Of a stretch of 64,000 bases of DNA, positions 1 to 59,369 are shown piece after piece. The position numbers and the translations under genes were made by a program. The stretch spans positions 2,533,430-2,597,429 of the forward strand of contig NZ_CP133268.1 of NCBI RefSeq assembly GCF_030915385.1, in the 5' to 3' direction. How positions within the stretch are numbered: position 1 is the stretch's first letter; every line of letters begins with the position of its first letter. The notes under the pieces were generated by a model. That model searched no databases and was not told where the DNA came from. It was given only the letters and a program-made list of their open reading frames with translations. This DNA is from Neobacillus sp. PS3-12 (GTDB lineage: Bacteria; Bacillota; Bacilli; Bacillales; Cytobacillaceae).

Positions 1-65
1 CTGTAATAAAGCGTACACTAACCTAATTTTGGTACCAGTATTTTTTCCTCTATAATTACTTATAT

Positions 66-1298
66 TTATAACCAATAAATTTTATTAAAGCGCCATATTA
101 ATGTAAGCCTAGAAAGGCCATACCTTTTCAAAATCTTTCCCTCTATTGTTGTCATGTTACATTCATTCTTATCTGGATATAGTGCGGTAATATACGCCAA
201 ATACCTCTCTCCATTACGTTTCGTATACTTAACAAAATCTCGGTGATAAAAACCATAAATCGTGTCGATTTTCTTTTGGGATCATTTTCTCATTGGTTTT
301 ATAACCCAATTTTTGATATCACATTGTTTAGGCCTAACAATTGAGCCAGAAATAACAATCGCATCATTGGCATGTGTCTTTTCAACTCCCCAATCAATGC
401 GTTTATTTGCGGTATCCCCACCTGTAGTCTGAGAAACTGGAGCTATATTTTTTAACTTAGTTTGGAGAAAAGTTTTTCCTTGCATCACATGCATTGCATC
501 AGCAAAAATGATTTTTCTGCTTTTTATTTTTTGGTAGAATCTCTTAGTATGAGCTAACTCATCACTTGTAACCTTTTCATGACAAACAGAACACAGGGTG
601 ATTAAGTTATGAACAGAATCGCTCCCACTTAATCTTCTTGGAATAATGTGATGTACTTCTAGTCGAGTGTTTGTCAATCCACAATCCTGACAAGTATTTT
701 GATCACGAAGTAACACCGCTTTTCGAATATTTTCATCTAAGCGATTGCTTTGTTGATATTCCCATCTGTATGGTTTATAGCCTTTTTCCAATGCGCGAAT
801 ATCAATGAAAACATCTTCTAAATAAATATGGTCGATTCTTATCCATTTCTGAAGTTGTTTGACCACTCTTAAAATAGAATACTTCTTTTGTTTGATACTT
901 GTCGGAATTCGTCCCTCCCGTTTGGAGGAAGAACGATTGTCAAATCGGGCTTGTCTGTATTTTTTATGCTGTCTTCTGTATCGACGGTATCCTTTCCTTA
1001 CAGACATTTTTTCTTTTACATCTGTCCGTAGTTCAATTGTTCCTTTTAATACAGGTTTATTTCTGGTCTTACACTTTTGTACTAAAGCGATCCCTACAAA
1101 TTTCGATCCATCATCAATCCCTAGATGCACTTGTGAAGTGTCGATTTCATCTCCAGGGATCTCTTTTTTTAGTTGAATCACCATAGGAAATTTACTTTTC
1201 AATACAGTTTTTTGTTTTCGGATTAAGTACCATGCACGATTTTCTTTTGTTGGAGATAACTTGTTGCCTTGTGAATCTACCACAAAACAATAGGTCAT
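66..1298 (-). pseudogene. iscB: IscB RNA-guided nuclease, interrupted by in-frame TGA
   Basis: IscB proteins are omega-RNA-guided DNA nucleases of IS200/IS605-type elements and relatives of Cas9. The first 338 codons show a PLMP-type N-terminus (about residues 5-43), RuvC-I with GIDDGSK (Asp62), an arginine-rich bridge helix (101-122, the RRXRR region), RuvC-II with Glu161, an HNH domain (203-243: two CxxC-type pairs, HH at 216-217, Asn231) and RuvC-III HANDA (His309, Asp312). A TGA at 282-284 then stops translation, but the same frame stays open for 71 more codons to a TAA at 66-68. These encode the usual C-terminal target-adjacent-motif-interacting domain (GFYHRDFVKYTKRNGE, then LKRYG and WRFNKIYWL). 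The intact protein would be about 410 aa, a normal IscB size. No transposase is seen. A CGA-to-TGA or similar substitution is inferred; the truncated product would lack its C-terminal domain. Confidence 0.85.
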
Positions 1299-1727
1299 TT
1301 CTGACCAACCTCCATTATGGGATTTTTCCTCCTTGCCAAAGTCAATGGACAGGACATGTTATTTCGGTGTTGGGTTTCCAAACCCTAGGAAACGGTCTTC
1401 CTCATAACTAACAGAGCAGCAGACTGGTGGACACATCCACAGGTGTTTCTTTACCTTATCCACTAACGTAGTTCATCATGCTATTTCCTTTTCAGGAAAC
1501 TACACTCACTTAGGCTTGAAAGCACGAAGCAGTCTCATACAAAATGACTGGGTTTCATTTTAATACGATTTAGATGTATTTGATATGGTTTTTTCTTAAA
1601 CTGATTCGAGCTCCTATTAAACATAAAAAGGTAAGGAGTACTGCTTCCCTACCTCTGCCCAGGCGAACGGCTTTCGACACTATATGCTCCCTCGCGGTAT
1701 TCCGCGTTTCGCCAGTTACATATAGTC
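1299..1727 (-). ncRNA. HEARO / omega RNA upstream of iscB (boundaries approximate)
   Basis: HEARO RNAs lie directly upstream of iscB-family genes and act as the guide-bearing omega RNA. This 430-nt stretch is non-coding and rich in inverted repeats: an 8-bp stem 1679-1686/1719-1726 enclosing a 5-bp GC hairpin (1693-1697/1702-1706), an 8-bp stem with one G-U pair at 1630-1637/1646-1653, a two-part stem at 1468-1503, GTGGA/TCCAC at 1427-1440, and GGGTT/AACCC at 1372-1385. The identity rests on position, length and structure; I did not match a covariance model. In IscB systems the guide lies at the 5' end of the RNA, which here would be just beyond 1727. Confidence 0.65.
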
Positions 1728-1847
1728 TTTTAAATTTATTTCATTTTAACAAATTTTCTATCAATATACAACTTTTTAATCCTCTTAATCTGAATTTTTT
1801 GTAAAAAAATGCGGTAGTAATTTTTGGATTTGATGTGAGCCTTTTTG

Positions 1848-2519
1848 TTACTTCACCATTCCATTGCGTAGAGCCGTTACTACCACCTGTGTCCGATCTT
1901 CACAGCTAAACTTTTGCAGGATCCGATGCACATGCGACTTGACGGTGCCCTCGGTGATCATTAGTTTCTTGGCGATCTGATCATTTCTTAAACCATAAGC
2001 CATTTCTTGCTAAATTTCCTGTTCTCGTTCTGTTAAAGACTCAAATGACGATGGAGATTGTTTTTCTTGAAAAACAAAGTACGTTCCCGTTGCAATTCTT
2101 GATAGAGCAGAAGCAGCTAAGCTCGTTCTATATACCGCCTCACCGCGAAATGCCGAACGAATCGCATCCAACATATCCTCTACATCCGCATCCTTCAACA
2201 AGTAACCCACAGCTCCTGTGCGAATTCCTTGGTATATGTACTCCTGATCATCAAAGGTCGTTAAGATAACAATCTTTGTTTGTGGCAGACGCTTCATGAT
2301 TTCTTCTGTCGCTTCAATTCCTGACATGGATGGCATCTGGATATCCATTAGAATAACATCTGGCTGGGATTTAAGCGCCATTTCAACCGCTTCTTTTCCA
2401 TTTGTTGCTTCACCGCTAAGCTTCATATCATTTTGTAATCCAATTACATATCCAAAACCTTGCCGAATCATCACCTGATCATCAACGAGCAAAACATGTA
2501 TCCTCTCTTCAGCTGGCAA
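1848..2519 (-). pseudogene. NarL/LuxR-family response regulator with in-frame TAG in the HTH domain
   Basis: The receiver domain is complete: acidic pair DD in LLVDDQ, phosphoacceptor Asp in LMDIQMP, Thr in ILTTFDD and Lys in LLKDAD. A TAG at 2010-2012 then interrupts the LuxR-type helix-turn-helix right after LTEREQEI. The same frame continues for 54 codons with the rest of a normal HTH (IAKKLMITEGTVKSHVHRIL) to a TAA at 1848-1850. TTG-to-TAG is the simplest explanation. TTG at 2519 is preferred as start because GAGGG lies 8-9 nt upstream; the frame is open further, into the kinase gene. The partner is the histidine kinase just upstream. If the stop is real, the protein cannot bind DNA. GGTAGTAA/TTACTACC arms (1813-1820, 1877-1884) followed on the minus strand by a T run may terminate the operon. 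Confidence 0.8.
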
Positions 2520-2535
2520 AATGAATCCCTCTTTC

Positions 2536-3678
2536 CTATTGCGGAATCGCTGCAATTATTTTGAATCCATGTGGTTCAACAGTCGAGTATTTTAGCTGTC
2601 CGCCTTTTTCTTCAAGTCTCAGCCTCATGCCCTTCAATCCGAAGCCCTCGGTAACTTTTTGACCTTTTTCCAATTTACCATTATCTTGAATGCTCAGTAA
2701 CACAAGATTTGACTCCTTTTTTAGCATGACATTCACCTCAGTGGCTTGGGAATGACGAATAATGTTGGTGAGAGCTTCCTGAAGTACTCTAAACAAAATT
2801 CCATAGACCTCATCATTTATATCCTCTTCGTTTATTTCTGATTGAAATTGATATTGAATAGTGGAAGTTGACTCCATGCGCGAAAGCAACGCTTTTAATG
2901 GGATGACTCCTGAACTGGACTGGTCATCTGCTAAAGAATGTACAGAAATGCGAATATCGTGAAGGCCCTGACGAGCAACAGCCAACATTTCTTCAAGTGA
3001 TTTTTCAGCTTTCTCGGGTTCTTTTTTTAACATAAATTTTAATGCCTGCATTTGAACGATTAACGATGTCAAGCTATGTCCAATAGCATCATGAATGTCT
3101 CGGGCAATCCGCGTCCTTTCCTCCAAAATGGCATATTGCATGGCAGTCATTGAGGCCTCCTGTAGTTGATTATAAGCCTCTTGAAGTTCCGCCAGATGCT
3201 GCTTGTCCAATTCAATCATTTCATTACGCTGCATTCTGGTACGGATTAAAAAGTACAAAATGATGGAGAAGAGAATGAAAGATAGGATACTAAAAAAATT
3301 ATCACTTCCAAAGCGGATATAAAGCATGGCTGTGACAAACATGGCAGCCATGCCCGTAATGGGGGACTTTGATAAAGATAATTGCATCGAAATGGAGATC
3401 ATCACGATCGTTAGAAAATAAATCAGTTTGACGTCATGATTCCAAACTAATCCTGCACTGACTTCAATGGCAACTGCTGATGCTGCGATAATTAGACGTG
3501 AAGTAGTCCACTTTGATTTAGGAAAAGTCAGGATGACGGTAAATGTTATCCCAATCAAGATGTTTAAAAGAACCTTTGGCATGGAGCCGTAAAAAAGATG
3601 GTTCACGTACATTAGGATTAAGATAATGAGGCTGCTCACTAGCTTTCTTTTAAATGATTGGTATTCTATTATCGACAT
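2536..3678 (-). CDS. Sensor histidine kinase, HisKA_3 (NarX/DesK-type)
   Basis: A 380-aa membrane sensor kinase. The first 145 residues hold about five or six hydrophobic segments, a short coiled-coil linker follows (155-185), then the HisKA_3 dimerisation/phosphotransfer domain with EERTRIARDIHDAIGH (phosphoacceptor His196). The C-terminal ATPase domain has an N-box region (LFRVLQEALTNIIRHS) and GFGLKGMRLR. This kinase class phosphorylates NarL-type regulators, matching its downstream neighbour. GGAGTG stands before the ATG, 14 nt after the CcdC-like gene, so the three genes probably form an operon. The signal is unknown. In B. subtilis the YdfHI pair controls an RND/MmpL exporter, ydfJ; the mmpL gene next door makes a similar link possible, but this is inference. 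Confidence 0.85.
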   Translation of the reverse strand: MSIIEYQSFKRKLVSSLIILILMYVNHLFYGSMPKVLLNILIGITFTVILTFPKSKWTTSRLIIAASAVAIEVSAGLVWNHDVKLIYFLTIVMISISMQLSLSKSPITGMAAMFVTAMLYIRFGSDNFFSILSFILFSIILYFLIRTRMQRNEMIELDKQHLAELQEAYNQLQEASMTAMQYAILEERTRIARDIHDAIGHSLTSLIVQMQALKFMLKKEPEKAEKSLEEMLAVARQGLHDIRISVHSLADDQSSSGVIPLKALLSRMESTSTIQYQFQSEINEEDINDEVYGILFRVLQEALTNIIRHSQATEVNVMLKKESNLVLLSIQDNGKLEKGQKVTEGFGLKGMRLRLEEKGGQLKYSTVEPHGFKIIAAIPQ

Positions 3679-3692
3679 CCTGATTCACTCCA

Positions 3693-4226
3693 TTAATCTG
3701 TCTGTAACATACGTTTTTGCTTGCGCAGTAAGAAAATATAATAAATGACATAGTAGGCGAACATGATTAGCATAAGTCCGGCTGTCCAGGAATTTCCCAT
3801 CGCCCCACTCATATTTTGGAAACTATTCGCCTGTCCTTGCTGGTAACTGGATAAACCGCCTTGGGAATATAAAGAATAAAAGCGGTAAAAAAGCCGTGCT
3901 AGAAAAATAACCGTAACAGTGCTGCCAATCCAAGTGTTTGGACGGTAATACAGCCGTCCATCCCGTTGTTCAAAGTTGGTAATATTAGCGCTATAGTAAG
4001 CCAATACAACTCCAATCAGAATCCCGATTATATCGGAAATAAAGCTTATTGGGTGGGAAATCGAACCTGTTGTAAATAATAGGCCAACGACCAATAATAA
4101 TATTGTCCGAAACACTAAATTCCCTTTTCTAAGCTCCTGCCAGCCGATATTGCGGCGAACACGCCGATAGATACTAAAAATGATGGCTGCCGCTATGATA
4201 ATAATGCTGTAAAAATGTTGATTCAT
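3693..4226 (-). CDS. CcdC-like (DUF1453) integral membrane protein
   Basis: A 177-aa protein with four likely membrane segments: residues 5-20, 40-55, 60-80 and 150-168. An additional weak hydrophobic stretch spans about 100-117. The RRVRRNIGWQELRKGNLVFRT region between the first two segments and the YYSANITNFEQRDG motif resemble CcdC/DUF1453 proteins. A strong GGAGG precedes the ATG. It is the first gene of a likely three-gene unit with the kinase and regulator, 14 nt before the kinase. Its role may be in sensing or in membrane stress; nothing in the sequence fixes it. A cytochrome c biogenesis role, suggested by the family name, is not supported because no ccdA or resA is nearby. Confidence 0.65.
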   Translation of the reverse strand: MNQHFYSIIIIAAAIIFSIYRRVRRNIGWQELRKGNLVFRTILLLVVGLLFTTGSISHPISFISDIIGILIGVVLAYYSANITNFEQRDGRLYYRPNTWIGSTVTVIFLARLFYRFYSLYSQGGLSSYQQGQANSFQNMSGAMGNSWTAGLMLIMFAYYVIYYIFLLRKQKRMLQTD

Positions 4227-4423
4227 TTTGGTTCCTCCCCCAAAACAATATTTTTACCTAAAGTATTATCCAATTATTACCTTAATACCTTTTTTCTCTC
4301 CAAATAAAGCAATACTTTATGCTCATTTTCATAAAGCATCTCCTTTTGTGAATCGACTAACTCTAGATAGATTTTTTAATAAAACATATCTATCTAGAGT
4401 TAGATATCTGCTGAACCAATTCA

Positions 4424-4696
4424 ATTACCATTGGGCTGTTTTTTTCTTCTTCTCGGGTATTGATAAACATTCTCTATTCCCTTGGGTCTGTGATTTTCTC
4501 TTCCTCAGGCATCGATGAGCCTTCTCAATTCCCTTGAGCCTAATTTTTTCTCCTCATCGGGCATTGATGGACCCTCTCGATTCCCTTGAACCCGAATTTT
4601 TCTCTTCATTGGGCATTGATAAACTTTCTCAATACCCTTGAACCTGAGTTTTTCCGTTCTTCGGGCATTGATGAGCACTCTCAATTATCATTAGTC
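4424..4696. repeat. 52-bp tandem repeat, about five copies
   Basis: A core (C/T)GGGCATTGAT recurs with an exact 52-bp period: copies start at 4454, 4506, 4558, 4610 and 4662 (the last partial), and a degenerate half copy precedes the first. Each unit carries CTCAATTCCCTTGA and a T-rich tail. Because 52 is not a multiple of three and stops occur, it is not coding. It fills most of the 523-bp gap between mmpL and the CcdC-like gene, that is, the 5' region of the two-component operon. Confidence 0.9.
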
Positions 4697-4702
4697 CTCC
4701 CT

Positions 4703-4741
4703 AAAAAAGGCAGTCTCCGCTCATTAAAGGAGACTGCCTTT
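4703..4741 (-). terminator. Intrinsic terminator after mmpL
   Basis: A 13-bp perfect stem (4706-4718 with 4729-4741) with a 10-nt loop; on the minus strand it is followed by a run of T. It lies 9 nt after the mmpL stop. Confidence 0.9.
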
Positions 4742-4749
4742 CATCTATT

Positions 4750-6981
4750 CTATAAACCAATTTCCTTATTCACTTTTTCTTCCTGCTTTTTCCACAGTTT
4801 TCCCGGCCAAAATGCATATCGGCCAAGGACGGTTGTGATGGCTGGAACTAATAGTGGACGCACCACAAAGGTATCAAGAAGAACACCAATGGCAGTTACG
4901 AGCCCGAATTGCAGCAAGACTTGAATAGGCAGAGTTGCTAAAACAGCAAAGGTTCCTGCTAATATTAGACCAGCGGAGGTAATGACACTGCTCGTTTCAC
5001 TAACGCCATTCGCTATTGCTTGTCGGTGCGGCTGGGTACATTTGTTTTTCCATATACTTGAAATCATAAAAATATTGTAATCCTCGCCCAGAGCGACCAA
5101 GAAAACAAAGGCATATAACGGAATCAGAGCTGATATTGCTGGCTGCCCCAGCCCATTATGAATTAAGAGCCATCCTGCTCCTAGAGCAGATAAATAGGAT
5201 AGTAAAACAGTAATAATCAGATAAACCATCGCCACTACCGAACGTAAATACATGAGCAATAGTGCAGCAATAATCACTATCACGACTGGAATAATTACCT
5301 TCATATCATGATTAGTTGCCTGTTGTGTGTCATAGAGTTTTGATGTTTCCCCGCCGATCCAATAATGTTTTGGGGGATCAATGCCTGATTTAGATAAAGT
5401 GTCAGAAACCCTTTTTGAAATAACTGCGATTGAGTCGACTAATTTTGTATCGTACGGATTTCCTTTTAAAACAACGTTATAGGATTGATAGTTTGCATCT
5501 TTCTTTCCTTTTACCGGGTCCTCAACATGGTCCACGAAAGAAAGTTTGCTAATCTGCTCTTTTATTTGAGGATCCTTACCCTCCGAATTGACAATGACTT
5601 GAACAGGCGCTAAATCGCCAGGAGCGAAATGCTTTGTCATTAATGTAAATCCTTCAAGTGAGGGCATATCCTTAGGAAATGAATCTAACAAGTTTTGCGT
5701 ATATTGAATGTTTGGAACTGACAACGCCAATCCACCCAGAATGACAACACTCAAGATGATAACTGTCCATGGCTTTCCAACCACAAAGTTCCCTAATTTC
5801 CTGCTAAATTTACTATGTGCCACACGTCTGCGATATTTCTTGCCTTTCTTAGCCTCCAATTCCGCCAACATTTCCTCTGTTCTTGGAATAAACGGGAAAA
5901 ACGATACTCTTCCAAAAATCGCGAGCAATGCCGGGAGCAAAGTTAAGGCAGTAATGCCCATAATAAGAATGGCTAAGCTAAAAGGAACCGCAAATCGCTG
6001 AAATGACCCAAACTGCGCTAACAATAAGGTACATAAGCTCAATACAACTGTAATGGCGCTCACCATAATGGCGCCTCCTGAATGCCTGATTGCCTTCTGA
6101 AGAGCGATAAATTTATCTGATTCCTCAAGCAAGCATTCTCTGTATTTTGATACTAAAAATAAGCAATAGTCTGTTCCCGCGCCAAATAAAAGCACGGTCA
6201 TTATCGAGGTTGCCTGGGAATCAACGGTAATAATGCCCTGTTTAGCTAAAAATCCAAGAACTGGTCCTGCCAATCCATTTGCGAATACTACTCCAATAAG
6301 CGGGATAATAGCAAGAATGGGTGAGCGATAAAGCAGAATCAACAAGATTAGTACAATTAGAATTGTCGATATTAATAACGTAACATCCGCTTTGCCAAAA
6401 AGCGCTGTTGCATCGGTTGCAATCGCTACGGGCCCTGTAAAACGAACATGCAAGCCAGCATCACTTAAATTTTTTTCAAAATTGAGGTTTGATTTCTGCG
6501 CTCTTAAATAGCTTTTTAAGTCAGTCTGATTGGCAGCCAAATCATCTGTACTGGCTTTCTTTTTCATAAAAATAGGAGTCACAATTGCTGTTCCATCTTT
6601 AGAGGCATTTGATTTCAAAACTTGACTCGGTACATTGCCGAGCGGCGGAATAAAGTTTTGGGCTGACAATGGGTCTTTATCCAAATGTTTATAGAGATTA
6701 GTTATTAATTGATAATCCTGATCCGTTAATCCGCCATCACGGTACCAGACAAGGAGCAACGGTGTCCCTGTATTATTTGGAAACTGTTCTTTTGCCACTT
6801 TTTCTGCTTGGACAGAAGTGACATTGCTTGGTAAATCTGATGCCCCATTATTCAACACTTTATTTACATTTGGAAAAATGGAGGAAAGCAAGCCGACCAC
6901 AATAATCCATACAGCAAGTGTTACCCATCTTCCTTTGCGGCTGGAAACAGCCTCAACAAAATGAATGAGAATATTTTTCAC
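4750..6981 (-). CDS. MmpL/RND-family exporter (YdfJ-like)
   Basis: A 743-aa membrane transporter with the MmpL layout: one N-terminal membrane helix (about 18-38), a large extracytoplasmic domain, a five-helix block (about 200-360), a cytoplasmic loop rich in basic residues, then the same arrangement repeated (helix near 405-425, external domain, helices about 570-725). The conserved GAGTDYCLFLVSKYRE and ALGEDYNIFMISSIW motifs, which carry the intramembrane Asp residues of the proton relay, are visible. The family exports lipids or toxic compounds. GTG start with GGGGAAG upstream. A sigma-A promoter at 7038-7066 overlaps a palindrome that the divergent TetR protein probably binds. Confidence 0.9.
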   Translation of the reverse strand: MKNILIHFVEAVSSRKGRWVTLAVWIIVVGLLSSIFPNVNKVLNNGASDLPSNVTSVQAEKVAKEQFPNNTGTPLLLVWYRDGGLTDQDYQLITNLYKHLDKDPLSAQNFIPPLGNVPSQVLKSNASKDGTAIVTPIFMKKKASTDDLAANQTDLKSYLRAQKSNLNFEKNLSDAGLHVRFTGPVAIATDATALFGKADVTLLISTILIVLILLILLYRSPILAIIPLIGVVFANGLAGPVLGFLAKQGIITVDSQATSIMTVLLFGAGTDYCLFLVSKYRECLLEESDKFIALQKAIRHSGGAIMVSAITVVLSLCTLLLAQFGSFQRFAVPFSLAILIMGITALTLLPALLAIFGRVSFFPFIPRTEEMLAELEAKKGKKYRRRVAHSKFSRKLGNFVVGKPWTVIILSVVILGGLALSVPNIQYTQNLLDSFPKDMPSLEGFTLMTKHFAPGDLAPVQVIVNSEGKDPQIKEQISKLSFVDHVEDPVKGKKDANYQSYNVVLKGNPYDTKLVDSIAVISKRVSDTLSKSGIDPPKHYWIGGETSKLYDTQQATNHDMKVIIPVVIVIIAALLLMYLRSVVAMVYLIITVLLSYLSALGAGWLLIHNGLGQPAISALIPLYAFVFLVALGEDYNIFMISSIWKNKCTQPHRQAIANGVSETSSVITSAGLILAGTFAVLATLPIQVLLQFGLVTAIGVLLDTFVVRPLLVPAITTVLGRYAFWPGKLWKKQEEKVNKEIGL

Positions 6982-7037
6982 TATTCTTCCCCATTTCCTT
7001 CTGGAATTGTTTTTTAGCTAAAATTTTTATATCATTA

Positions 7038-7066
7038 ATTATATATACTGGTTAGTTAATTTTCAA
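7038..7066 (-). promoter_or_regulatory. mmpL promoter with embedded TetR-type operator
   Basis: On the minus strand TTGAAA and TATAAT are separated by exactly 17 nt. The spacer contains the inverted repeat ACTGGTTAGT (7047-7056), a typical TetR half-site layout. Repression of mmpL by the divergent tetR product is inferred. Confidence 0.65.
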
Positions 7067-7094
7067 AACTTATTTCTTAAGGCGGGCAGATAAA

Positions 7095-7721
7095 ATGGCA
7101 AAGGAAAAAACACGCCGAGCACTCGGCAGACCGAAAGCATCAGGAAATGAAAGACCAACAAAAGAAATCATCCTGCAGACAGCTACCCACCTCTTTTTAA
7201 GGGATGGCTTCCAAAAAGTTTCCGTCGATGATATTGCCAAAGAGGCCGGCATGACCAAAGCCACTGTTTATTATTACTTTGAAACAAAAGCAGAGCTGTT
7301 TAAAGAAGCCATGGTAAGCTTAATGGAGCGAATTCGGGGGCATATTGTTCAATTTCTAAGGACTGACGAACCTTTATATGACAGACTTTACGATGTCATA
7401 CTTGCTCACTTGCAGGCAACAAACACGTTTGACTTGGAAGGCTTTATGCGTGAATCGAGAACTTCCCTTTCAATGGAACAAATTCAGGAAATAAAAATTG
7501 CCGAGGAAAATATGTTTGACAGTATTGAACAAGCATTCATAGAAGCCATGGAAAAGGGGGAAATCCCCAGCATTCACGCAAAGTTTGCCGCACATTCCTA
7601 TATGGCCTTAGCCAAGGTTGGAAATTACAAACAAGCGGATGGCACTTCTTTTTTTTCAAGCATTGAGGAAACAGCAAAGAACATCTTACATGTTTTTTGG
7701 TGCGGATTTTTTGATCAATAA
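7095..7721 (+). CDS. TetR/AcrR-family transcriptional regulator
   Basis: A 208-aa repressor. The N-terminal helix-turn-helix (about residues 22-68) has the family pattern GFQKVSVDDIAKEAGMTKATVYYYFETKAEL shortened here to its key parts: VDDIAKEAGM, then TVYYYF. The C-terminal ligand-binding domain is all-helical and without recognisable specificity. AAGGCGGG precedes the ATG. It is divergent from mmpL with a 113-bp gap carrying the mmpL promoter and operator, so it most likely represses mmpL and perhaps itself; the inducer is unknown. Confidence 0.9.
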   Translation: MAKEKTRRALGRPKASGNERPTKEIILQTATHLFLRDGFQKVSVDDIAKEAGMTKATVYYYFETKAELFKEAMVSLMERIRGHIVQFLRTDEPLYDRLYDVILAHLQATNTFDLEGFMRESRTSLSMEQIQEIKIAEENMFDSIEQAFIEAMEKGEIPSIHAKFAAHSYMALAKVGNYKQADGTSFFSSIEETAKNILHVFWCGFFDQ

Positions 7722-41123: not shown

Positions 41124-41917
41124 TCACTCCACTGCCTTATTTTCATCACTATTAAAATCAATGACTTGTCCTTCAAAAGCATTAACGAAAAGGTCTTCTT
41201 TATCATTCACAACAACCCGCCAGGTTGGTGTTAATACTTGTGAAGCAGCAAGCTGGACCAAAGTTGAATATCCTAATTCAATATTGGTAATTTTACTTTT
41301 TGCTTTAAGCAAACCCTTTTGATGCAAGGTTTCGATCGCATTTAACGGAGGAAGTACTTCCTCATTCGTTGCCATCTTGTCCAAACCGGTCAAATAGGTT
41401 TGTTCATATGAAGTAATCCTATTATCTTTACTGATATTTAACGTGACCGTTCCACTTATATCTTTATAGAATTCTTTATTTTCATATTGCTGATAAAACG
41501 TAATCGTACCCTTTTTATCATTTTTGCTAAAAAATTGATAATGGTCACCATAGAGAATATTTTCCCTTAAAAAAGAAGTGACCTCTCTAACACTAAATTT
41601 CGAGCTTAATTGGACTGGCTTTGCAAAGGCTGCCTCAATCGTTGTGGCATCTTTAAGATAAGCCATCTGCCCCTTTAATTTATCAAAATCCTCTTTGGTA
41701 AAGATTTTCGGCTTGGCGCTGATATACTGCTCTTTTGCCGGGTCTTTGGAAGCTCTATATACTTAATTTCATCTGCTTTCAACTTATCCTCAAAGGTTGC
41801 TTCGGTTGCAAATTCATATTTATTATTATCGCGAATTTTTATGAACTGATAGAAGAGATAAACATCTAAAATCAGGAAGGTCAAAATAAAGATCGTTTTA
41901 ATCTTACTCCAATCCAT
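41124..41917 (-). pseudogene. walI: Two-component regulatory protein WalI (YycI), frameshifted
   Basis: WalI is a membrane protein that with WalH modulates the WalK kinase. The first 55 residues are normal (a membrane helix in FILTFLILDVYLFYQF, then LKADEIKYIELPK), then the frame shifts near 41745-41747. One extra A in CTTCCAAA restores LPKDPAKEQYISAKPK and a continuous 264-codon protein down to AVE at 41124, the expected length being about 280. The rest of the protein is intact in the second frame. walI is conserved and accompanies an essential system, so a sequencing error is plausible. Overlaps walH by one base (TAATG). Confidence 0.85.
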
Positions 41918-57333: not shown

Positions 57334-59318
57334 TAAAATTTTTCAATATTGACGAGACAATCATATAATGTGCTTCCTAGTCCGTTGTCAGAAGCCCGAC
57401 TGGATGTCAGCGAATTAATCGGACCACCGAATTTGCTCCAAATTCCTTCATCAATATTGATTGTATTAGGATGAATTTTTATATTTAATGAAGCAATACC
57501 TGTTACTTCACCGCGATCGTTCCAAACTCTTATATTATCTCCATTATTCAACTGAAGATTGTTAGCAATGTTTTCTGCTATCTCAACCTTAACAACAGGG
57601 TTATTTCCCCATAGTTGATAATTCTGCGAGTGATTCGATCGCAATGGATGGATCGTTAGCAAATGGTAGGGATATTTATTTGCCAGTTCCGAGTCTGACC
57701 ATTTAGATTCCATCGGAAGAGAAAGCTTTATACGACCATACTTGCTGGATGTGAATTCGTACTTTCCAGTAGGCGTCTGAAAATGATAATCCGACCAAGG
57801 AACCTTTTTAACTGGTAATTCCAAGGTATGCTCATTTTTCAGCTTTTGAAGAGTTAAACCTTTTTCAGCGAGTGGCTTTAAACACATCTTGAGCCATTCC
57901 TCTCTTGAAAAATCAAAGTCCTTACCAAATCCAAGCCTGTTTGCAAGCTGCGTCCAAATCCACAAGTCTGATTTTACTTCCCCTGGTGCTTCGACAAGTT
58001 TGGGACCATAATTAATATAATGATGGTACATGGACGAATAATATAAATCTTCTTCCTCAAATGCGGTTGTTGTTGGCAAAACATAATCAGCCAGTTGGGC
58101 AGTGTCTGTCATATATTGCTCGATAACAACAAGCGTAGAAATAGAAGAAAAAGCCTTTTTGACGACGGATGAATCCGGAACCTGGGTAAGCGGATTGCCA
58201 CATGTAACAAAAATCATCTCGATACTTGGATTACTAGCTGTTAATATTTCCTCTGCTTGTTTCATGATTGGAAAACTTCTTTGTGTATCTTTACGTTCTG
58301 GTAGGGTCAATTCCTCAAAAGCAAAACTCTGACCCACTTGAAGGTTGGCGTAATTGGCTCCGCCCCCAGGAATGCCAATGTTTCCACTTACAGCAGCCAA
58401 AGCATCAATGAGACGAATCGTGTTGCCTCCATTGCTGTAACGTTGCATGCCAAGGCCCATATATGTTCCTGTCGGCTTCCCGGCATAAACTCTAGCTAAA
58501 AAAGTGATCCTTTCGATTGGAACTTCCGTTATTTCACTGATTTTCCCAAGGGAAATTCCATTAAGCAATTCTGCTAAATCTGAAAAACCGTAAGTATGAT
58601 CCTCTATAAAGTCATGGTCCTCTAACCCTAAGCGAAGAATTTCCTTTATAATACCCGCAGCAAGCAAACCGTCCATTCCAGGCTTTATCGAGATATATTG
58701 GTCCGCAATTTTCGCTGTACTATTATAGATCGGGTCAATGACATATATCTTGGTACCACGTTTTTTTGCTTCGAGGAGCTGCTCATAAAAGTGCATGTTA
58801 GTACGGGCAACATTTCTTCCCCAAATAATAATATTTTTACTATTTATAAGGTCTTCCGGAGCATGTGCGCAGGCATTCCCGAAATCCCATTTTTGTGCTT
58901 CAATTCCTGAACCCCAGCAGAGTGAACCGATTAACTCTGTGACACCGCCATAAAGGTTAAAAAAACGCTGATCAAGGTTTTTCAATATACCATTATTTGC
59001 ATAATCATGACTATGAAGGACAGCGGTGCTTCCATATTTATTTTTCACTTCTACTAATCTATCAGCAATTTCATCCAGAGCCTCTTGCCATGAAATAGGT
59101 TTAAATTCGCCCTTTATCTTCTTTAATGGCTGGAGCAGCCGCTGAGAAGAGTTTGCCCTCATTTCCAGCATGCGGCCACGGCCGCAAATTTTGCCCATTG
59201 TTATTGGGTGGGAGGGGTCACCATCAATTTTTATGACTTTTCCATTTTCGACTGTAACTTGAAAGCCACAGCTATCCCAGCAGTTTAATGGGCATGCTGA
59301 TTGAAATCGTTCAGACAA
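57333..59318 (-). CDS. yyaE: Molybdopterin oxidoreductase (YyaE-like)
   Basis: A 661-aa member of the DMSO-reductase family. The N-terminus has a [4Fe-4S] motif (Cys9, 13, 17 and 45: CPLNCWDSC and ICGRG), followed by Mo-bisPGD binding domains: WGRNVARTN, DPIYNSTAKIAD, MYMGLGMQR-type TYMGLGMQRYSNG and NPLTQVPDS, and the C-terminal molydopterin dinucleotide-binding domain starting near LLTIHPLRSNHSQNY. No signal peptide, so a cytoplasmic enzyme. Conserved in this place next to ychF in Bacillus; substrate unknown. Confidence 0.9.
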   Translation of the reverse strand: MSERFQSACPLNCWDSCGFQVTVENGKVIKIDGDPSHPITMGKICGRGRMLEMRANSSQRLLQPLKKIKGEFKPISWQEALDEIADRLVEVKNKYGSTAVLHSHDYANNGILKNLDQRFFNLYGGVTELIGSLCWGSGIEAQKWDFGNACAHAPEDLINSKNIIIWGRNVARTNMHFYEQLLEAKKRGTKIYVIDPIYNSTAKIADQYISIKPGMDGLLAAGIIKEILRLGLEDHDFIEDHTYGFSDLAELLNGISLGKISEITEVPIERITFLARVYAGKPTGTYMGLGMQRYSNGGNTIRLIDALAAVSGNIGIPGGGANYANLQVGQSFAFEELTLPERKDTQRSFPIMKQAEEILTASNPSIEMIFVTCGNPLTQVPDSSVVKKAFSSISTLVVIEQYMTDTAQLADYVLPTTTAFEEEDLYYSSMYHHYINYGPKLVEAPGEVKSDLWIWTQLANRLGFGKDFDFSREEWLKMCLKPLAEKGLTLQKLKNEHTLELPVKKVPWSDYHFQTPTGKYEFTSSKYGRIKLSLPMESKWSDSELANKYPYHLLTIHPLRSNHSQNYQLWGNNPVVKVEIAENIANNLQLNNGDNIRVWNDRGEVTGIASLNIKIHPNTINIDEGIWSKFGGPINSLTSSRASDNGLGSTLYDCLVNIEKF

Positions 59319-59369
59319 GTTTCACACCCCCAATTCAACCTTTTTATTTTAGCATAATATAAATAAGTC

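What the first reader, a model, noticed from the sequence alone, without database searches (positions are those of the whole stretch)
66..1298. IscB with an in-frame TGA before its C-terminal domain
Seen: a TGA at 282-284 divides an otherwise complete 410-codon IscB; the 71 codons after it keep the same frame and encode the family's C-terminal domain (GFYHRDFVKYTKRNGE, LKRYG). Known: this domain contacts the omega RNA and target-adjacent motif. So either a recent nonsense mutation inactivated it, a minimal 338-aa form is made with all catalytic motifs, or UGA is read through. One base separates this from an intact RNA-guided nuclease.
Basis: partly seen in the sequence, partly recalled or inferred. 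Interest (0 to 1): 0.65.

Follow-up and report, generated by a model that had tools for sequence, protein, structure and literature searches.

The report
Interrupted IscB element before serA
A small RNA-guided nuclease gene in a Bacillus-like genome carries a premature stop and is probably freshly broken (or misread); more interesting is that it belongs to a group of mobile elements that seem to insert into the ribosome-binding sites of host genes.

Summary
On the minus strand a 338-codon IscB (1298-282) ends at a TGA (284-282), and 71 further codons stay in frame to 66 and encode the conserved C-terminal domain. All 14 aligned relatives have a sense codon there. The lesion looks recent, or is a base-calling error: constraint behind the stop resembles that before it, the omega RNA keeps 77 of 78 covarying pairs, and the window holds two other broken genes. 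I found nothing that favours readthrough.

The surroundings were more informative. The gene lies in a 1.6 kb element inserted between a ZTP riboswitch and serA. Empty sites at three loci place the junction right after AGGAG, the Shine-Dalgarno core; in 9 of 13 insertions a start codon follows within 13 nt. Twelve of 15 copies carry GGAGGTGA and then a paired hairpin abutting the displaced gene, so they might rebuild the ribosome-binding site they split (inferred). The window's own copy sits at an AGGAG that is not serA's own site, and its terminal Shine-Dalgarno is eroded. The TGA is ordinary; the insertion habit may be a new variant.

The parts
282..1298 (-). IscB ORF as encoded: 338 aa (RRXRR/PLMP region, RuvC, HNH), ends at the premature stop
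282..284 (-). in-frame TGA; sense codon (Arg, His or Lys) in 14 of 14 aligned relatives
66..281 (-). 71 open codons of the C-terminal (wedge/TAM-interacting) domain, then the family's usual stop
1299..1610 (-). left end of the element and omega RNA scaffold; 78-pair covarying fold, first stem starts at the element tip. Rfam HEARO hit at 1321-1556 is below its gathering score (35.9 against 83)
1611..1630 (-). left flank, expected omega RNA guide (CTTTTTATGTTTAATAGGAG); ends in the AGGAG after which the element inserted
   Evidence: the guide role is inferred
1..65 (-). right end of the element: eroded Shine-Dalgarno (AGAGGAAAA) and terminal hairpin; the tip lies about 12 bases left of the window start (ends uncertain by up to two bases)
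1650..1729 (-). ZMP/ZTP riboswitch of the serA leader, now separated from serA (which lies left of the window) by the element

Best explanation
This is a recently interrupted copy of a 1.6 kb IscB element that has no transposase of its own. The element inserted co-directionally into the serA leader, between the ZTP riboswitch and serA. The nonsense codon removes the C-terminal wedge/TAM-interacting domain; the 338-aa product keeps the RuvC and HNH motifs but should no longer recognise a target-adjacent motif, so the nuclease is most likely inactive. Shown: the stop, the open and conserved frame behind it, the paired omega RNA, the insertion point. Inferred: that the base is real, that loss of the domain abolishes activity, that the guide is the flank ending in AGGAG, and that mobility needs a transposase in trans.
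For: Sense codon in 14 of 14 aligned relatives and 9 of 9 compared by codon. Codons behind the stop have dN/dS 0.07-0.13 against 0.08-0.15 before it over nine pairs. The omega RNA of ours forms 77 of 78 pairs of a fold that no shuffle of 500 matches. One copy only in its genome. The empty site in G001 shows the junction. The C-terminal domain is an independent, confidently predicted beta domain (pLDDT 72-89 for residues 341-400, in a model that is weak overall, 55).
Against: No reads were available, so the base itself is unproven. The same window has a frameshift in yycI and a TAG in a response regulator, which would also fit a sequence with errors. dS is near saturation in most pairs, so cannot date the stop closely. 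Another close copy has its lesion in the same domain (L040), which might hint that this domain is dispensable.
Confidence: 0.6

Rival explanations
1. The TGA is a sequencing or assembly error and the gene is intact in the cell.
For: Everything else in protein and omega RNA is intact. yycI, found whole in G001, is frameshifted in the same window at a short A run, and a neighbouring response regulator has an in-frame TAG.
Against: Of 29 G001 ORFs that match the window only yycI is truly broken. Two of the three lesions are substitutions, not indels. The element's eroded right-end Shine-Dalgarno is not a one-base error.
Confidence: 0.22
2. A minimal 338-aa IscB is made and still has a function, such as omega RNA binding, without TAM recognition.
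For: RuvC and HNH motifs and omega RNA are kept. Among ten close copies (ours, L003, L034-L041) two have a protein lesion and both lie in the C-terminal 71 of 410 codons.
Against: The open frame behind the stop is still under constraint-like conservation, which a long-established short form would not need. Two lesions are too few. The family keeps the domain in 14 of 14 aligned relatives.
Confidence: 0.1
3. UGA is read through and some full-length protein is made.
For: The frame behind the stop is open and conserved. Leaky UGA in Bacillus is recalled from general knowledge, not from a call.
Against: No aligned relative has a stop there. The window's other lesions are a TAG and a frameshift, which UGA readthrough does not explain. 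The Rfam scan of window 1-6000 at E up to 1 listed no recoding element.
Confidence: 0.05

Closest known systems
HfmIscB (PDB 9k2z) and other IscB/HEARO nucleases of OMEGA systems, e.g. OgeuIscB
   Same: Domain order, HNH and RuvC regions, omega RNA directly upstream with the guide at its 5' end; read through, the protein aligns with 9k2z over 410 residues.
   Different: The window's copy stops before the C-terminal domain; its element ends and AGGAG junction differ from the NTGA-type group.
NTGA-type IscB/IsrB elements (e.g. L016, L018, L019 in the same family; DtIsrB)
   Same: Same nuclease type and omega RNA position.
   Different: In 3 of 7 more distant loci looked at, ATGA lies just right of the apparent right end (by eye), in line with the NTGA motif reported for IsrB (PMC9581776 passage); the clade here abuts AGGAG on the left and mostly G on the right.
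Non-autonomous IS200/IS605-type elements
   Same: No own transposase, terminal hairpin, insertion 3' of a short fixed sequence (PMC7290912 passages).
   Different: The short sequence is the Shine-Dalgarno core, and a Shine-Dalgarno motif lies next to the terminal hairpin in 12 of 15 copies. Membership in IS200/IS605 was not shown.

Membership tests
IscB (RNA-guided nuclease) | RRXRR/PLMP-RuvC and HNH domains | tested here: met
   PF14239 3.4e-47, PF01844 3.4e-12, NF040563 288.6 bits against cutoff 175
IscB (RNA-guided nuclease) | C-terminal wedge/TAM-interacting domain in the protein | tested here: not met
   encoded in frame but behind the TGA; so this copy is filed as an interrupted IscB gene, not as a working IscB
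IscB (RNA-guided nuclease) | omega RNA directly upstream | tested here: met
   78-pair covarying fold in 13 copies, 77 pairs in ours
HEARO RNA (Rfam RF02033) | score at or above Rfam's gathering threshold | tested here: not met
   35.9 bits against 83, E 8.6e-5; relatives of the clade score 31.9-45.5
IscB (RNA-guided nuclease) | guide taken from the left flank of the element | tested here: inconclusive
   first stem starts at the element tip and the flank is fixed by three empty sites; no RNA data
IscB (RNA-guided nuclease) | RNA-guided DNA cleavage | not testable with these tools
   needs an assay
IS200/IS605 transposons | Y1 transposase in the element | tested here: not met
   no transposase ORF beside IscB; the genome holds two partial Y1 matches, one with a stop
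IS200/IS605 transposons | insertion 3' of a fixed tetra- or pentanucleotide without duplication | tested here: inconclusive
   AGGAG left of the element at three loci with empty sites, no duplication needed; the ends leave up to two bases of freedom
Recoded UGA (readthrough) | stop conserved in relatives | tested here: not met
   0 of 14 aligned relatives

The most novel reading that the evidence does not exclude
This IscB clade is a ribosome-binding-site element. It inserts inside Shine-Dalgarno sequences (AGGAG|G), so its omega RNA guides end in the Shine-Dalgarno core. Its right end (GGAGGTGA, then a hairpin, then CCAG) rebuilds the site: the hairpin folds away about 50-90 nt and brings the element's own Shine-Dalgarno to about 10-14 unfolded nt from the displaced start codon, so the host gene, sometimes an important one, stays translated. 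The guide then cuts uninterrupted alleles and keeps the element in place.
Probability: 0.35. Interest if true: 0.65.

Novelty: new variant of a known kind. Interest (0 to 1): 0.4.

Why it matters
The stop codon alone matters little: it marks one copy as probably dead. The element family matters more. If an RNA-guided nuclease element targets the Shine-Dalgarno core and carries a replacement, it would be a transposon made harmless at the level of translation, able to enter operons (by my reading of the ORFs: before hemC, nadB, an ATP synthase subunit) without silencing them. It would also account for these elements lying directly upstream of start codons, and the reconstitution could be tested with simple reporter fusions in a laboratory Bacillus.

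Tried and rejected
Rejected: a fixed internal guide. Rfam places the 5' end of HEARO at 1556, which left about 54 conserved bases before the element tip and suggested a constant guide. The 66-69% relatives showed that this stretch is the first omega RNA stem, so the guide is the flank as usual.

Rejected: the UGA as part of a general code change; the window's other lesions are a TAG and a frameshift. Rejected: a restart that supplies the C-terminal domain; the first ATG in frame behind the stop lies late in the domain (by eye; GTG and TTG were not examined). Rejected as true breaks: stops in two further alignments (TetR-like at 6987-7712, oxidoreductase at 57336-59333), which lie upstream of the likely start codons.

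Of little use: the AlphaFold model of the read-through protein has mean pLDDT 55, and I did not search it against structures. A search for further copies by omega RNA DNA in 193 genomes gave the known copies and one 60-base fragment. Promoter-like matches around the element do not exceed shuffles (7 against a mean of 6.6). PADLOC gave only weak HNH-type matches. The scan of genome contigs returned two loci, L003 being the same genome as G022.

Full report
What is there. On the minus strand, window 1298-282 encodes a 338-aa IscB (NF040563 288.6 bits, cutoff 175; RRXRR and HNH in Pfam). It ends at a TGA (284-282). The next 71 codons stay in frame to a stop at 66-68 and read SQKKIDTIYGFYHRDFVKYTKRNGE...LKRYG.... 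With the stop masked, the 410 residues align end to end with HfmIscB, PDB 9k2z (490 bits).

Relatives. A search of 193 held genomes of the family found, besides G000, ten genomes with an IscB copy or fragment at 57-80% identity over the matched part (G156 and G192 with more than one). A sample of 397 genomes of the order gave two more genomes at E up to 1e-80 (G244 with three copies, G453). The window's genome has one copy, and the only other held genome of the genus, G001, has none. The codon at the TGA position is a sense codon in 9 of 9 close copies compared by codon and in 14 of 14 relatives in the protein alignment (Arg, His or Lys). None of the matches at 57% identity or more has a stop inside the part aligned to residues 1-338. 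L040 (genome G121) has a frameshift in its C-terminal domain. So among ten close copies (ours, L003, L034-L041) two have a protein lesion, and both lie in the last 71 of 410 codons.

Age of the lesion. A Nei-Gojobori comparison of ours with nine relatives gives dN/dS 0.08-0.15 for codons 1-338 and 0.07-0.13 behind the stop (41 codons only for L040); the value behind the stop is lower in 6 of 9 pairs and higher in 3. The 28 control pairs without ours and L040 show no systematic difference between the two parts either (by eye). dS is near saturation in most pairs, so this says only that the part behind the stop is not visibly relaxed. The omega RNA alignment of 13 copies gives 78 predicted pairs, 32 with a change on both sides, and 0 of 500 shuffles reach it on any measure. 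In ours 77 of 78 pairs form. The stop is either recent or a base-calling error.

Error or mutation. From 79.5 kb of G001, 29 ORFs of 100 aa or more match the window. Three alignments contain a stop; in two it lies upstream of the likely start codon, and one gene, yycI, is truly frameshifted in ours near 41740, at a short A run. A response regulator without a counterpart in that stretch is cut by an in-frame TAG at 2012-2010 before its DNA-binding part. These fit either a sequence with errors or real decay. I put a real mutation at about 0.6 and an error at about 0.22.

What the truncation does. The C-terminal domain is described as TAM-interacting in PMC9755519 (section 9 read). Passages of PMC9581776 on IsrB name the wedge and TAM-interacting domains, and a passage of PMC13180657 gives the wedge domain a part in TAM recognition and HNH placement. 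In the AlphaFold model of the read-through protein, weak overall (mean pLDDT 55), residues 341-400 form a beta domain with pLDDT 72-89. A product ending at residue 338 should lack TAM recognition; that it is inactive is inference.

Surroundings. Downstream, left of the window, lies serA, and upstream at 1729-1650 a ZMP/ZTP riboswitch (63.1 bits, gathering 39). In related genomes the riboswitch precedes serA at 5 of 8 serA loci examined; one of the other three has a glycine riboswitch. In G001 the leader reads ..AATAGGAGGGGATAGG.. without any IscB; in ours ..AATAGGAG, the element, then TGGATAG... The element thus entered the serA leader in the same orientation as serA. It has no transposase ORF. 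Its genome has two partial Y1 transposase matches, one with a stop; the nine other genomes searched have one to seven matches each. serA keeps a Shine-Dalgarno of its own near its ATG.

Insertion habit of the clade. Two more empty sites fix the junction. hemC: G019 (L082) reads ACTAGGAGGCTTTTTATG, the occupied L003 reads ACTAGGAG + element + GCTTTTTATG. icmF: G022 (L091) reads GAGAGGAGGAGAACGATG, the occupied L039 reads GAGAGGAG + element + GAGAACGATG. The junction lies after AGGAG, with up to two bases of freedom because the ends repeat. Left flanks were read in 13 copies, but the search pattern contained GGAG, so only the three empty sites are independent evidence. A start codon opening at least 60 codons lies 6-9 nt after the right end in 9 of 12 independent insertions (L003 and L038 counted once). 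L079 was dropped because a second right end follows it; it too precedes a gene that looks like minD. L013 was not in that count and shows no such start by eye, which makes 9 of 13. The misses are ours, L040, L080 (followed by a frame of 53-56 codons) and L013. Background: in the window plus the G001 stretches (partly homologous to each other) 54 of 226 AGGAG sites and 24 of 65 AGGAGG sites have such a start 3-13 nt on. Against these, 9 of 12 has binomial chances of 0.0003 and 0.008. Selection against insertion into genes could by itself produce such an excess. Gene names beside the insertions (nadB, an ABC permease, hemC, icmF, fdhA, an ATP synthase subunit) are my reading of the ORFs.

Right end. 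Between the IscB stop and the flank, 12 of 15 copies carry GGAGGTGA directly before a hairpin whose outer pair abuts the flank; L034 and L079 have GGATGTGA, and ours AGAGGAAAA. The hairpin appears in the predicted fold of 14 of 15 copies; L079 is the exception. In 12 copies whose pairs were counted inwards from both ends, the outer five pairs form in 12 of 12 and pairs 7 and 9 form in 12 of 12 with several pair types; pair 12 forms in 10. The outermost pair uses the first base right of CCAG, which may belong to the host. Folded away, the hairpin (51-89 nt) leaves about 10-14 nt between GGAGG and the displaced start (my count). I infer that the element could rebuild the ribosome-binding site it splits. 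A hairpin bridging Shine-Dalgarno and start codon is recalled for phage T4 gene 38; one search listed no paper that I used for it. The competing reading is that the hairpin serves only a transposase, as in IS605 elements (passages of PMC7290912), and that the adjoining Shine-Dalgarno is incidental.

Other IscB groups. Of seven more distant loci looked at, L016, L018 and L019 have other ends with ATGA just to the right, by eye, like the NTGA motif of IsrB. L004 and L042 (59% and 57%) do not show the ends described here. The AGGAG habit therefore seems to belong to the clade from about 64-66% identity upwards.

Print. Listings of searches showed no account of IscB elements in Shine-Dalgarno sites. 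Likely sources (Altae-Tran 2021, Kapitonov 2015, Weinberg 2009, Meers 2023) are not held, so I do not claim that it is unpublished.

Verdict. The TGA is present in the sequence given and is most likely an ordinary recent loss of function, or an error. Readthrough and a minimal working protein have little support. The element family around it is worth following.

Noticed in passing
window 2010-2555, minus strand (frame continues to about 1848): A LuxR-type response regulator is cut by an in-frame TAG just before its DNA-binding part; the frame stays open behind it.
   Followed up: partly
window 41127-41917, minus strand: yycI is frameshifted near 41740 relative to G001, at a short A run.
   Followed up: partly
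window 1650-1729, minus strand: A ZMP/ZTP riboswitch, found before serA in 5 of 8 related serA loci, now stands before the omega RNA and IscB, so these might be transcribed under ZTP control.
   Followed up: partly
L078 961-3754: An element of this clade sits between the HEARO RNA (153 bits) and the IscB-like ORF of a different IscB element: one element nested in another.
   Followed up: no
L079, right of the element: A second right end (Shine-Dalgarno, hairpin, then CAGGAGCAGCCGATG) stands directly before a gene that looks like minD.
   Followed up: no
L041 4724-5053: The copy before an ATP synthase subunit gene has lost the 5' half of its omega RNA but keeps an open IscB of 409 codons.
   Followed up: no
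L011 3438-3496 (same place as L040): A SECIS_3-like element (60.4 bits, gathering 63) lies downstream of the G121 copy, in what looks like a formate dehydrogenase gene.
   Followed up: no
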